From positions 1 to 41,484 of the forward strand of contig JAPOXY010000246.1 in assembly GCA_026706845.1 (NCBI GenBank): DNA of 41,484 nucleotides, in the 5' to 3' direction. A program made the position numbers and the translations under genes. The notes beneath the pieces were generated by a model. It searched no databases, was not told where the DNA came from, and saw nothing but the letters and a program-made list of their open reading frames with translations. The stretch is from Gemmatimonadota bacterium. Lineage in GTDB: Bacteria; Latescibacterota; UBA2968. This document shows positions 1-23,391 of this stretch, piece after piece. Numbering within the stretch: position 1 is the stretch's first letter; each line of letters begins with the position of its first letter.

Positions 1-562
1 GTACAACACCCATATTACGGTCGAGAAGTGCGACATCGCGGGGTGTTTTGTAATTGGATTTGTGGCTGCCGGGAATGCAGGCAAATCCGCCATCGCCGGG
101 GTTGCAATCGGTGAGTACCCACGAGACTACGGTGAGGCCACAGCGCATGCGCCCGTTGTGAAATTGATAAAAGTGCGTCAGGTCGTCAGCGGTGCCGCCG
201 CCGTGCATGACATGGCCTTCGGCTCCTTTTTCCATGATGATGCCGTAGAGGTGGTCGAGACGACAGTCTTCGCGCAGCAATTCTGCGAGATAGGGCACGA
301 TGTTTGGATGGGCAAGTAAATCGCGGAAGGGTTGGCACCAGGGGTTGGGCCAGGTGAGCATGCCGCCCAAGTCGGTGCGCCCGTGTTTACCCCTGAGTGC
401 TCTGGATTCGCCGGAGAGGGATTGCTCTGGCGGGCGAATGCGCATCCTGTCGGGGTTGCTGTCAATGGCTTTGTTGCACGCGGCAATTTCTTCGGGTGTT
501 AAAGCGTTTTCGACGACGAGGTAGCCGTTGAGATCAAAGAAGAATTTTTCGTGTTCGTCCAT
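1..562 (-). CDS. Phytanoyl-CoA dioxygenase (PhyH) family protein, 3' end cut by window
   Basis: Reading in from the left edge on the minus strand gives 187 residues starting MDEHEKFFFDLNGY, with no stop before the window ends. The opening (NGYLVVENALTPEEI) and the GDGGF and IPGSHK motifs (about residues 157-168) are typical of PhyH-family Fe(II)/2-oxoglutarate oxygenases, which hydroxylate small organic substrates. The usual first metal motif HxD is not seen. In its place is MHGGG (119-123) followed by HFYQFHNG, a pattern I associate with a subfamily whose ligands may differ. The second metal His and the 2-oxoglutarate-binding Arg would lie beyond the window. The gene starts 39 bases downstream of a small membrane protein gene and probably shares its transcript. 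The ribosome site is weak. The substrate is unknown. Confidence 0.85.
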   Translation of the reverse strand, partial: MDEHEKFFFDLNGYLVVENALTPEEIAACNKAIDSNPDRMRIRPPEQSLSGESRALRGKHGRTDLGGMLTWPNPWCQPFRDLLAHPNIVPYLAELLREDCRLDHLYGIIMEKGAEGHVMHGGGTADDLTHFYQFHNGRMRCGLTVVSWVLTDCNPGDGGFACIPGSHKSNYKTPRDVALLDRNMGVV

Positions 563-20614: not shown

Positions 20615-21754
20615 TCAGGGTAGTCCTAATTCACGACAGAAGGTAGAAAACGGTAGAACGCGGGTGTTGGTTGTTGCATTGCCAAAATCCTTTGTGCCCA
20701 GATGTACCTGGTAGAATCGCGGAATATCTGTTCTCTCTCTGAAGTACCTGCATGCGGGAGAAGTGCCGCGCTCGCCGGTTTTGCACTCGACGGCAAATTC
20801 AGCATATCCATCGCGGAGAACGACAAAATCTACCTCGCGTTTGTCGATATCTCGGATGAAGCGCAATTCCATGTTATATCCCTCTGTGTCTTCTATATAG
20901 TGGCAGTACTTCAACAAGTGTCCGGCTACCATGTTCTCAAACCGGGCACCGCGGTCTGCTACGCGCGACCAGTCCCAGAAATACAGTTTTTTTTCTTTGC
21001 GTACGGCCCTGATCCTCTTTGCTCCAAATGGTGGAATGCGGTAGCACATGTATAGCCTTTCAAAGATCGCAAGCCAGCGTTCGACGGTTTCGTAAGCCAC
21101 TTGTAAGAGTTTGCTGAGGCTGTTGACCGAAAGCGGGGATCCCACACAGGCGGGCAGGTGAGACAGCAACAGGTCCAGCATGGATACCTCTCGCACATTT
21201 TCCAGATCGCGGAGGTCTTCATAGATGACTCTTGCGGAATGCTCGCGTAGCCATCTGCGGTGAAATCGCGCCTCTCCTCTGAGAAATGGCTCGGGGAAAC
21301 CGCCAAATCTGAGCAATTGCGCCACGAGCGCGTTATCGGGCTTCTGCCCGCATTCCATCAGCGTGAAGGGATGAAGACGGTAGTAGTGATATCGTCCTTG
21401 CAAGGAGTCGCCGCCTTTGCGATAGTAGTCCAGCCGGGCCGAGCCGGTGACGATAAAAGAAACGGATGTCTTGTTTTTATCGAATAATCCCTTCATTAGA
21501 TTTCGCCATTGCGCGTACTTGTGAATTTCATCGAAAATGACGCGGGTCTGTCCCGAAGGGAGTCTTCCCGCCAGAATGTTCTCGCGGTCGGCCAGTACAT
21601 CCCAGTTCAGATAGGCCGGTGAGGATTCATTTCGTCCTTGCCCCAACAGTGAGATTGCGAGTGTTGTTTTTCCAACCTGGCGTGGGCCGCCGATGAATAT
21701 CATTCTGTCTGCGATATCTGCTTCAATATGATCCATGATGTAACGGGGTTCCAT
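20615..21754 (-). CDS. AAA-family ATPase with C-terminal DUF4143-type domain
   Basis: The 379-residue protein has Walker A GGPRQVGKT (22-30), Walker B RVIFDEIHKY, a sensor-like VTGSARLDYYR and, at the C-terminus, the DUF4143 pattern ending in a PD-(D/E)XK-like core (KREVDFVVLRDGYAEFAVECKT). Members are widespread and uncharacterised; nuclease-like or DNA-related roles have been inferred from the fold only. The frame opens at GTG 21763, but ATG 21754 has AAAGGTG at good spacing. It is the only minus-strand gene among the plus-strand accessory genes and separates the adenylating enzyme from the aldehyde-dehydrogenase-like gene, which suggests later insertion. Its promoter lies inside a 32-base tandem repeat. 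Confidence 0.88.
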   Translation of the reverse strand: MEPRYIMDHIEADIADRMIFIGGPRQVGKTTLAISLLGQGRNESSPAYLNWDVLADRENILAGRLPSGQTRVIFDEIHKYAQWRNLMKGLFDKNKTSVSFIVTGSARLDYYRKGGDSLQGRYHYYRLHPFTLMECGQKPDNALVAQLLRFGGFPEPFLRGEARFHRRWLREHSARVIYEDLRDLENVREVSMLDLLLSHLPACVGSPLSVNSLSKLLQVAYETVERWLAIFERLYMCYRIPPFGAKRIRAVRKEKKLYFWDWSRVADRGARFENMVAGHLLKYCHYIEDTEGYNMELRFIRDIDKREVDFVVLRDGYAEFAVECKTGERGTSPACRYFRERTDIPRFYQVHLGTKDFGNATTNTRVLPFSTFCRELGLP

Positions 21755-21775
21755 ACTTATCACCTTTCTCGCATG

Positions 21776-21844
21776 TCGTGAGTATTTTAGACTGAACCTT
21801 AATATACTCGTGAGTATTTTAGAGTCAATATGAAAATACTCATG
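21776..21844. repeat. Two 32-bp tandem units with alternating GAGTAT/ATACTC sites
   Basis: Two units, 21776-21807 and 21808-21839, share their first 16 bases exactly (TCGTGAGTATTTTAGA) and 26 of 32 overall; a partial third copy (TCATGTAT) follows. Within them GAGTAT (21780), ATACTC (21804), GAGTAT (21812) and ATACTC (21836) alternate, each class repeating at exactly 32 bases, about three helical turns. The middle pair forms a palindrome with a two-base centre (21804-21817). The array looks like a multi-site operator. Confidence 0.65.
21801..21828 (-). promoter_or_regulatory. Sigma70-like promoter for the AAA/DUF4143 ATPase, embedded in the tandem repeat
   Basis: On the minus strand TTGACT (21828-21823) and TATATT (21806-21801) are separated by 16 bases, each matching 5 of 6 consensus positions. 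The palindromic ATACTC-GT-GAGTAT site lies between the -35 and -10 elements and overlaps the -10, so a protein bound there would block transcription. The ATPase ATG lies about 40 bases downstream of the predicted start. Confidence 0.55.
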
Positions 21845-21966
21845 TATCTCATTGTGCTTGCTTTTACTGAGGAGAAAAGCTACTTTTTTATGCTAAACGC
21901 GAGTCAAAGCCACATCTCTGAATGTTGCAGGGAAGCGATAATTAGTCTTTCAAAGAGGCAAAATAT

Positions 21967-23391
21967 ATGATTCACTTACCCATTTTACGCGCGGGAAAAC
22001 CGTACACGAGTTTGAGCGTTCAGGAAGTGTCGCATATTCAAACTGGCGAGCCGCTCGTTCGGGTCAGTCAGGCAAACCGTGGGCTGGTCGCAAAAGACTT
22101 AAATGGGGCGGCGGCGAACAAACAGGTGCTCGACAGGCTGGGTGTACCTGAACTCGTAGGTATAACCCGCGAAGCTGCGCGCTTATTTGCAGAAGCCGAT
22201 TTGCCAATTGGTGACCATATCCAGACGCCCGATGACTATGTCAAACAGGTGTCTGGTACAACGGGTATGCCCGAAGCTCTCTGCCGCGCGAATATGGAAA
22301 AAATTCAACTCGTGTGTACGGAGATCGAAGCTATTTTAGGGGGTCTCACGCGCGGGTTAGACCTCGCTGTGCTCGATGAGGGCTGGCACGATCAGGATGG
22401 TCGCTCTCTCAGCTATATTTGCCAGGCCGATGCCCTCGGGGCGATATTGCCGAGCAATTCACCGGGGGTACACGCGCTGTGGGTTCCCTCCATACCGCTC
22501 AAAGTACCCCTCGTTCTCAAACCCGGGCGCGAAGAGCCATGGACGCCTTTCCGAATTGCACAGGCGTTTATCGAAGCCGGGTGCCCGCCAGAAGCGTTTG
22601 GGTTTTATCCGACGGACCACGGTGGTGCCACTGAAATTTTGCTTCGCTGCGGTCGCTCCATGCTCTTTGGAGGCGGGGCGACGGTCGCGCCCTGGCTGGG
22701 CGATCCCCGCGTGGAAATCCACGGGCCTGGGCAGAGTAAGGTTATTATTGGCGACGATGTGATAGACCGCTGGGAAGACTATCTCGACATCGCGGTTGCC
22801 TCGATTGCTGCAAATGGCGGTCGCTCCTGTATCAATGCGTCGGGTGTGTGGGTTCCCGCGCATGGTCGAGAAATTGCCGAAGCACTCGCAGAGCGATTGG
22901 CAAAAATTGTCGGGAGACCTCTGGATGATCCAGATGCGCAGATCGCGGCATTTACCAACCCCACATTCGCCGATCAAATTTCGACAGCGATAGACATTCA
23001 TCTGAAAACCCCGGGGGCTGAAGATCTGACAGAAGAATTGCGCGGGGATCGGCTGGTCGAGATCGATGGCTTGAAATTCTTAAATCCCACGGTTGTCTGG
23101 TGCGATGATTTTGAACATCCCCTTGCAAATACCGAATATTTGTTCCCATACGCGAGCGTAGTCGAGGTGCCACAGTCGGAAATTCTGGACAAGATTGGAC
23201 CGAGTCTCGTGGTGACAGCAATAACAGAAGACCGTGTATTTATCGACAAATTGCTCAATTCGCCCCATGTTGAAAGACTCAATGTGGGCGCGATTCCCAC
23301 GCCTCAGATTTCTTGGGATCAACCACACGAGGGCAATTTGTTCGAACACCTGTACCGGCAGCGTGCGCTGCAATGGGCAAAACAGGCTTAG
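21967..23391 (+). CDS. Aldehyde-dehydrogenase-fold reductase (EhpG/GriC-like acyl reductase candidate)
   Basis: The 474-residue protein has the aldehyde dehydrogenase layout. The nucleotide-binding region is PSNSPGVHALWVPSIPLKVP with LVLKPG, and the catalytic Cys is Cys288 in NGGRSCINASG. A region corresponding to the usual ELGG reads VEIHGPGQSKVIIG. The sequence is divergent from sugar or fatty aldehyde dehydrogenases. Together with a C-terminally short adenylating enzyme upstream and an iron alcohol dehydrogenase three bases downstream, it fits an NAD(P)H-dependent reductase of an activated carboxylate, as proposed for EhpG and for GriC. The reverse direction (aldehyde oxidation) is equally allowed by sequence. 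AAAGAGG precedes the ATG. Confidence 0.78.
   Translation: MIHLPILRAGKPYTSLSVQEVSHIQTGEPLVRVSQANRGLVAKDLNGAAANKQVLDRLGVPELVGITREAARLFAEADLPIGDHIQTPDDYVKQVSGTTGMPEALCRANMEKIQLVCTEIEAILGGLTRGLDLAVLDEGWHDQDGRSLSYICQADALGAILPSNSPGVHALWVPSIPLKVPLVLKPGREEPWTPFRIAQAFIEAGCPPEAFGFYPTDHGGATEILLRCGRSMLFGGGATVAPWLGDPRVEIHGPGQSKVIIGDDVIDRWEDYLDIAVASIAANGGRSCINASGVWVPAHGREIAEALAERLAKIVGRPLDDPDAQIAAFTNPTFADQISTAIDIHLKTPGAEDLTEELRGDRLVEIDGLKFLNPTVVWCDDFEHPLANTEYLFPYASVVEVPQSEILDKIGPSLVVTAITEDRVFIDKLLNSPHVERLNVGAIPTPQISWDQPHEGNLFEHLYRQRALQWAKQA

What the first reader, a model, noticed from the sequence alone, without database searches (positions are those of the whole stretch)
21776..21844. 32-bp tandem operator-like array wrapped around the ATPase promoter
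Two units share 26 of 32 bases, and GAGTAT/ATACTC sites alternate with exact 32-base spacing, about three helical turns, so all lie on one face of the DNA. The central palindrome (21804-21817) covers the spacer and overlaps the -10 of a TTGACT-16-TATATT promoter reading into the AAA/DUF4143 ATPase. This looks like cooperative repression by a dimeric regulator, perhaps also affecting the divergent ALDH-like gene.
Basis: seen in the sequence. Interest (0 to 1): 0.55.

Follow-up and report, generated by a model that had tools for sequence, protein, structure and literature searches.

The report
Self-read operator of an ATPase–nuclease gene
The repeated palindrome in front of this ATPase gene looks like a real control site that has travelled with the gene between unrelated bacteria, and distant relatives often carry their own different palindrome in the same place, which suggests that this very common antiviral-candidate protein family regulates its own gene.

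Summary
The array is real: two 32-bp units, 26/32 identical, never matched in 2000 shuffles. Its four GAGTAT/ATACTC half-sites enclose the -35 and -10 boxes of an AAA_14–DUF4143 gene that matches PADLOC's single-gene phage-defence candidate PDC-S01. The core occurs once in the 5.46-Mb assembly.

The array goes with the ATPase. The core ACTCATGAGT (≤1 mismatch) lies upstream of 32 of 55 homologues at ≥50% identity, from many phyla, and of 1 of 22 below; repeated cores are always 32n bp apart. Operator likeness follows ATPase likeness far more than host phylum; adjacent DNA shows none. Distant DUF4143 genes, including three paralogues in this genome, have other palindromes: 17 of 26, and 28 of 59 in a replicate, against 16 of 145 neighbouring genes.

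Best explanation (inferred): the ATPase–winged-helix–PD-(D/E)XK protein represses its own promoter, dimers binding on one DNA face. An effect on ALDH is not supported: one congener has ALDH with neither ATPase nor array. Binding and repression are untested. What appears new is a gene-specific, co-evolving operator in a family called the fourth commonest prokaryotic defence system.

The parts
21776..21839 (.). two 32-bp direct repeat units of the operator array
   Evidence: 26/32 identity; conserved island in congeners
21780..21789 (+). half-site 1 GAGTATTTTA (outer half of unit 1, between promoter and ATPase start)
   Evidence: kept in all 7 aligned congeners
21800..21809 (-). half-site 2 TAATATACTC; overlaps the -10 box
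   Evidence: only place in the own genome matching WWTACTCRYGAGTAWW; core found upstream of 32 of 55 homologues at >=50% identity
21812..21821 (+). half-site 3 GAGTATTTTA, between -10 and -35
   Evidence: degenerate in L030
21832..21841 (-). half-site 4 GAAAATACTC, upstream of -35; with 21838-21847 a second, degenerate core 32 bp from the first
21823..21828 (-). -35 box TTGACT, lying in the spacer of unit 2
   Evidence: seen in sequence; TTGACTCTAAAA kept in L030
21801..21806 (-). -10 box TATATT inside half-site 2; transcript expected to start near 21794 (inferred)
   Evidence: seen in sequence
21760..21766 (-). Shine-Dalgarno-like AAGGTGA
   Evidence: seen in sequence
20615..21754 (-). AAA_14-DUF4143 ATPase (379 aa), PDC-S01 family
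   Evidence: Pfam; PADLOC; orthologues
21260..21754 (-). AAA+ domain, residues 1-165; Walker A G28-K29-T30 and D75-E76 invariant in 64 sequences
20978..21187 (-). predicted winged helix, residues 190-259, putative recognition helix 221-233
   Evidence: model; fold comparison; HTH Pfam hits in the Thermus homologue
20618..20953 (-). PD-(D/E)XK-like domain, residues 268-379; E307 and K325 invariant, D309 and E323 in at least 90% of 64 sequences
   Evidence: fold of this part barely tested by the fold searches
21967..23391 (+). divergent aldehyde-dehydrogenase-family gene, judged not to be the target of the array
   Evidence: Pfam; empty site in G012

Best explanation
The array is the autoregulatory operator of the ATPase gene. 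The ATPase carries a winged helix between its AAA+ domain and a PD-(D/E)XK nuclease-like domain. Dimers would bind the palindrome formed by facing GAGTAT/ATACTC half-sites, and neighbouring dimers, 32 bp (about three turns) apart on one face, would bind cooperatively. Because the -10 lies in half-site 2 and the -35 in the spacer of unit 2, bound protein would keep RNA polymerase out and hold the protein at a low level. Nucleotide state or engagement with a target elsewhere in the cell could release it and raise its own synthesis. Shown here: the sites, their conservation, their 32-bp phase, their co-variation with the ATPase and not with the host, different palindromes for different family members in one genome. 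Inferred: binding by the ATPase itself, dimers and cooperativity, repression, the release signal.
For: (1) The 32-bp repeat is beyond chance and conserved. (2) Core with <=1 mismatch in the 150 nt upstream of 34 of 78 loci, 36 hits in 11,692 nt against 8 in 435,678 nt of the rest of those loci, 168-fold; 32 of 55 at >=50% identity to the window ATPase under 11 of my host labels, 1 of 22 below 50%. (3) All 18 core-to-core spacings are 32, 64, 96 or 128, from 11 loci. (4) For pairs from different host labels with 60-70% ATPase identity the upstream 110 nt share a block (mean excess 8.4; 62.6% with excess >=5), while the DNA 160-270 nt upstream (0.16; 0%) and the DNA downstream (0.16; 0.6%) share none; same-label and different-label pairs are close at equal ATPase identity (9.4 against 8.1 at 60-70%). 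(5) More distant family members have other palindromes near the start: 17 of 26 scored, replicate 28 of 59, non-redundant replicate 19 of 35, against 16 of 145 intergenic upstreams of neighbouring genes. (6) Three paralogues of the same genome have three different inverted repeats, each with 0 of 60 shuffles as good (L010, L012, L013), which one common host regulator would not explain. (7) Winged helix in a confident model (pLDDT 91.4), fold matched over AAA+ and winged helix by archaeal STAND-type ATPases (2qen Z 14.5, 2fna Z 13.9) and by Orc/Cdc6 proteins (1w5t Z 10.5). (8) Between homologues with ACTCATGAGT-type and GCAAA-type operators the putative recognition helix falls to 27% identity (47% within the first class), against 53% (59%) in the AAA+ part and 44% (61%) in the nuclease part. 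(9) One core site per genome.
Against: No binding or expression data for this protein. Many homologues show no significant inverted repeat by my score (30 of 77 close, 9 of 26 distant, 31 of 59 replicate); some of these have direct repeats instead, and 13 of 55 homologues at >=50% identity have no core even at 2 mismatches. The sliding-window covariation test did not single out the winged helix: the highest partial correlation was at residues 301-315 (0.18), the window 181-195 reached 0.13. Two ATPase-less congeners keep one unit. The L013 palindrome is followed by a run of T and may be a terminator. Homologues and replicate genes are not phylogenetically independent.
Confidence: 0.72

Rival explanations
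1. A separate transcription factor of the host binds the array and regulates the ATPase, which is only a target.
For: Palindromes bound by dimeric repressors encoded elsewhere are common, and none of the data shows which protein binds.
Against: Operator likeness follows ATPase likeness at similar strength within and between host labels; paralogues in one genome carry different palindromes; one core site in the genome, so no regulon; DNA beside the operator is not shared, so no regulator gene travels next to the upstream side or just downstream within the stretches compared.
Confidence: 0.13
2. The array is not (only) an operator but a target of the ATPase-nuclease for replication, segregation, mobilisation or homing, as iterons or origin boxes are for initiators.
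For: The AAA+ and winged-helix fold resembles Orc1/Cdc6 (1w5t Z 10.5, 2qby Z 9.7); regular 32-bp spacing is iteron-like; the gene is present or absent between near relatives.
Against: The boxes of the promoter lie inside the sites, the palindromes sit at the gene start in subfamilies with quite different sequences (median 8 nt from the ATG among the 28 significant replicate genes), many loci have a single site, and the empty site gave no evident target duplication on inspection.
Confidence: 0.09
3. The array regulates the divergent ALDH gene, alone or together with the ATPase gene.
For: It lies between the two genes; one unit is retained next to ALDH in two congeners without the ATPase (L147, L150).
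Against: G012 has ALDH without array; L035 has array and ATPase with another neighbour; the operator recurs before ATPase homologues in many hosts; the leftover units carry 1 to 3 changes, compatible with drift.
Confidence: 0.05
4. The repeat acts in RNA, as a hairpin in the 5' leader that controls translation or termination.
For: In several subfamilies the inverted repeat ends 0-3 nt before the ATG.
Against: In the window the inferred transcript start (about 21794) leaves only half-site 1 in the RNA; the spacing is kept at multiples of 32 bp, which DNA geometry explains and RNA folding does not; in the ten GCAAA-class loci the -10 lies 6 nt before the ATG, so the palindrome is untranscribed.
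Confidence: 0.04

Closest known systems
PDC-S01 (PADLOC single-gene phage-defence candidate; AAA_14-DUF4143)
   Same: The ATPase matches four PDC-S01 models at E 1e-21 or better; ATPase fused to PD-(D/E)XK as described for PDC-S01 in PMC12988326 (passages).
   Different: I found no mention of an upstream operator or of autoregulation for this family.
Autoregulatory winged-helix repressors (ArsR/MarR type), as a working principle
   Same: Palindrome over the promoter boxes of its own gene; winged helix in the encoded protein; a Spirosoma homologue is even annotated 'transcriptional regulator, ArsR family'.
Controller proteins of restriction-modification systems (recalled)
   Same: Self-set expression level of a potentially dangerous nuclease through a palindromic operator.
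   Different: There the controller is a separate small helix-turn-helix protein; here one polypeptide would be regulator and effector.
Orc1/Cdc6 initiators with origin recognition boxes
   Same: AAA+ ATPase plus winged helix, repeats next to the own gene (the latter recalled); fold match.
   Different: A nuclease-like domain is added, sites are on the promoter, and most loci are chromosomal single genes.
STAND ATPases (NLR, CED-4, Apaf-1, Avs5; archaeal 2qen, 2fna)
   Same: Same AAA+ and winged-helix arrangement in the model.
   Different: No repeat sensor domain in the 379 aa; PD-(D/E)XK-like C-terminus instead.
Thermus thermophilus HB27 TT_P0211
   Same: AAA_14-DUF4143 protein with HTH hits; the gene I identify with it has an inverted repeat over its start; RNA up 6.6-fold in wild type with plasmid (section 7 read).
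   Different: The rise was seen only with TtAgo present; the authors give no mechanism; identity of TT_P0211 with TT_RS11170 is my inference from position and domains.

Membership tests
PDC-S01 | match to the PADLOC PDC-S01 models | tested here: met
   E 2.2e-48 and 1.2e-43
PDC-S01 | antiphage activity | not testable with these tools
AAA_14-DUF4143 (Pfam PF13173 + PF13635) | both domains above the curated cut-off in one protein | tested here: met
   82.8 and 85.5 bits against cut-offs 27 and 28.1
AAA_14-DUF4143 (Pfam PF13173 + PF13635) | intact Walker A and B | tested here: met
   G28 K29 T30 and D75 E76 invariant in 64 sequences
PD-(D/E)XK nuclease-like | D...(D/E)xK on the expected strands | tested here: met
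   D309 and E323-x-K325 on consecutive strands 307-314 and 317-324
PD-(D/E)XK nuclease-like | fold match of that domain | tested here: inconclusive
   fold search rows mostly span residues 1-289; domain not searched alone
Autoregulatory repressor with palindromic operator | palindrome overlapping -35/-10 of its own gene | tested here: met
Autoregulatory repressor with palindromic operator | site co-varies with the protein, independent of host | tested here: met
Autoregulatory repressor with palindromic operator | DNA-recognition part of the protein co-varies with the site | tested here: inconclusive
   recognition helix differs most between operator classes, but the sliding-window test gave no clear peak there
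Autoregulatory repressor with palindromic operator | specific binding and repression | not testable with these tools
   needs gel shift and reporter
STAND/Orc-type AAA+ with winged helix | AAA+ followed by winged helix | tested here: met
   model and fold comparison
STAND/Orc-type AAA+ with winged helix | membership in a named STAND or Orc clade | not tested
   no tree made
Replication initiator with iterons | origin activity of the array | not testable with these tools
   none

The most novel reading that the evidence does not exclude
One polypeptide is sensor, repressor and effector of a defence: in quiet cells the ATPase-nuclease sits on its own palindromic array and keeps itself scarce; when invading DNA or a phage activity changes its nucleotide state or draws it away, the operator is freed, the protein accumulates and its nuclease domain acts. 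Each subfamily would have its own DNA password, diversified so that many copies in one genome do not cross-regulate. The 6.6-fold rise of a Thermus member with a plasmid, seen only with Argonaute present, fits but does not prove this.
Probability: 0.28. Interest if true: 0.85.

Novelty: new variant of a known kind. Interest (0 to 1): 0.64.

Why it matters
A paper on archaeal immunity (passages seen) calls PDC-S01 the fourth most common defence system across prokaryotes and says that validation is pending for most such candidates. If each member reads a palindrome at its own start, its DNA specificity can be predicted from sequence, gel shifts and reporters can be designed at once, and induction of the promoter gives a direct assay for what the system senses. 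It would also explain how many paralogous ATPase-nucleases (up to 27 DUF4143 matches in one genome) can coexist without cross-talk.

Tried and rejected
ALDH regulation: rejected as the main role. RNA hairpin: unlikely for the window (inferred transcript start inside unit 1). Genome-wide regulon: near-copies GAGTATTTTAGA with one mismatch occur 23 times, about as often as the reversed-pattern control (25 matches with up to one mismatch, including the two exact ones, against 21); the full core occurs once. GAGTATTTT absent from the own-genome paralogue loci L010-L014, which led to the finding that paralogues have other palindromes. Viral contigs: 64 stretches matched a pattern, none encodes a relative; phage records: 9 weak matches, at most 28% identity; plasmids: 87 records, all below 60% identity. 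The upstream regions of three plasmid homologues were only read by eye, not scored; the Spirosoma one has a near-perfect palindrome abutting the ATG. Localising the reading part of the protein by partial correlation was inconclusive. Sequence search for a solved relative gave none for the single protein and only RecA Walker matches for the profile. One pattern hit in a genome without DUF4143 match (G023, L033) sits before another kind of gene and looks like chance. Paper searches for the family gave 1 (DUF4143), 7 (COG1373; listing only), 3 (PDC-S01) papers; searches for AAA_14 and for autoregulation terms gave nothing on it (listings only).

L086, L117 and L135 have interrupted frames: left out of the protein alignment A2 but kept in the upstream counts. 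Control genes come from the loci of the first sets, not from the replicate loci.

Full report
What was checked. Units 21776-21807 and 21808-21839 agree at 26 of 32 bases, and no shuffle in 2000 came near (maximum 22). Reading the minus strand, TTGACT lies at 21828-21823 and TATATT at 21806-21801 with 16 nt between. The half-sites are GAGTATTTTA (21780-21789), TAATATACTC (21800-21809), GAGTATTTTA (21812-21821) and GAAAATACTC (21832-21841). So the -10 lies in half-site 2, the -35 in the spacer between half-sites 3 and 4, and a protein on either unit would meet RNA polymerase. The ATPase start is best placed at 21754 (minus), with AAGGTGA before it.

The gene. The ATPase has AAA_14 and DUF4143 and matches PADLOC's PDC-S01. 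In 64 homologues Walker A and B are invariant, E307 and K325 too, D309 and E323 at least 90%. AlphaFold gives pLDDT 91.4, pTM 0.92: AAA+ to about residue 165, winged helix about 190-259, then a domain whose strands carry D309 and E323-x-K325. VIA-align puts archaeal STAND-type ATPases first (2qen Z 14.5, rmsd 3.4 over 239; 2fna Z 13.9, rmsd 3.6 over 240), then NLRs and CED-4, and Orc2 at Z 10.5; these rows cover AAA+ and winged helix and barely test the C-terminal domain.

Conservation near home. Of 15 genomes of the family searched, 8 (the own one included, all in the genus, 8 of 11 there) have the orthologue. In the 7 relatives that cover the region the array is an island of near identity. 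The most distant, L030, keeps a perfect GAGTATTTTA-N10-TAAAATACTC as unit 1, with unit 2 degenerate. A relative in another family of the class (L035) has the ATPase, the single-unit operator AGTATTTTA-N10-TAAAATACT and a different neighbour gene. Three congeners lack the ATPase. In G012 the two flanking genes are direct neighbours, with 16 nt between the aligned blocks. In G009 and G011 the ATPase is gone, another gene lies on that side, and one 32-bp unit is left. Whether G012 shows the state before insertion or a deletion is open.

Conservation far away. A scan of GTDB genomes gave 374 relatives, of which the best 80 were kept. Their upstream DNA shows a shared core ACTCATGAGT. With at most one mismatch it lies within 150 nt upstream of 34 of 78 loci (window included), 168 times denser than in the rest of the same loci. 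By identity to the window ATPase: 32 of 55 at 50% or more, 1 of 22 below. The 32 loci fall under 11 of my host labels, from Latescibacterota and Bdellovibrio-like bacteria to Verrucomicrobia/Lentisphaerae, Acidobacteria, Spirochaetes, Marinimicrobia and Planctomycetes. Thirteen of the 55 have no core even at two mismatches. Where two or more cores (two mismatches allowed) occur, in 11 loci, all 18 pairwise spacings are 32, 64, 96 or 128; one locus (L092) gives six of them, and three of the loci are close relatives (window, L067, L068).

Co-variation with the ATPase, not the host. Among pairs with 60-70% ATPase identity the excess block score of the upstream 110 nt is 9.4 within a host label (23 pairs) and 8.1 between labels (159 pairs); at 45-50% it is 1.1 and 0.4. 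DNA 160-270 nt upstream and DNA just downstream of the gene show no excess between labels. So promoter and coding region have moved together and the operator has been kept while everything around it was lost.

Other members, other palindromes. For distant DUF4143 genes I scored the best inverted repeat in the 120 nt before the start against 60 dinucleotide shuffles. With at most 3 of 60 shuffles as good: 47 of 77 close homologues, 17 of 26 distant genes, and 16 of 145 intergenic upstreams of other genes in the same loci (18 of 202 without that filter). A replicate of 60 further genes gave 28 of 59, or 19 of 35 after removing similar N-termini. The significant repeats of the replicate end a median 8 nt before the ATG. 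The sequences differ by subfamily, for example ATTTACGATTCAATCGTAAAT, TCTTTACAAAATAGGAGTCTAAATCCTATATTGTAAAGA and ACTGACTGAATTAACGTTAATTCAGTCAGT. In the window's own genome, paralogues L010, L012 and L013 have three different ones; the last may double as a terminator. The two other paralogue hits, L011 and L014, are short frames and were not scored. About half of the genes do not pass; at least one such gene (L060) has direct repeats instead.

What reads it. Host regulators differ between these hosts, the flanks share no gene, one genome holds several different operators, and the protein itself carries a winged helix; so the simplest reading is that the ATPase binds its own operator. A test by region of the protein was inconclusive: the partial correlation with operator likeness is weakly positive over most of residues 171-235 but peaks at 301-315. 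Comparing operator classes, the putative recognition helix changes most (27% identity between, 47% within the first class). This is inference, not proof.

Link to defence. Passages of PMC12988326 call PDC-S01 the fourth most common defence across prokaryotes, with 29,494 bacterial and 9,986 archaeal systems, ATPase fused to PD-(D/E)XK. Section 7 of PMC4406477 reports TT_P0211 (AAA_14, DUF4143, HTH) of Thermus thermophilus up 6.6-fold in wild type with a plasmid, not in the ago deletion. The gene that I take to be TT_P0211 has a 19-nt inverted repeat, 74% complementary, over its start.

Verdict. The new element is the family-wide, gene-specific operator that co-evolves with an ATPase-nuclease, with autoregulation as the most likely mechanism (0.72).

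Noticed in passing
L123, L128, L129, L131-L135, L138, L143, upstream of the match start: In these 10 homologues TATAAT lies exactly 6 nt before the ATG, so their mRNAs should be leaderless; with one mismatch and 5-7 nt, 23 of 78 close loci against 2-8 at six control distances.
   Followed up: partly
L084, L092 upstream: The likely start codon lies inside an operator half-site (ACTCATG).
   Followed up: no
L148 (G012); L147 (G011), L150 (G009): Empty site in one congener; in two others the ATPase is gone and the array has shrunk to one 32-bp unit.
   Followed up: partly
L060 upstream (and similar MDA-starting members L169, L173, L175): L060 has tandem direct repeats (ATGGACGCTAATCTAACCGACAA, about 23 bp) instead of an inverted repeat before a DUF4143 gene; the others were scored without a significant inverted repeat.
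   Followed up: no
L012 upstream: A paralogue in the own genome has ATTTTACTCAATACATTGAGTAAAAT, like the ACTC/GAGT half-sites of this family but with a longer spacer.
   Followed up: no
L086, L117, L135: Homologues with interrupted reading frames.
   Followed up: no
L105, upstream of a neighbouring gene: A control gene has a long inverted repeat (score 16) of related look (GTAAATTTTAC...); the gene was not identified.
   Followed up: no
L222 (Spirosoma linguale pSLIN02): A DUF4143-type homologue is annotated 'transcriptional regulator, ArsR family' and has a long palindrome abutting its ATG.
   Followed up: no
G041: 27 DUF4143 matches in one genome of the class.
   Followed up: no
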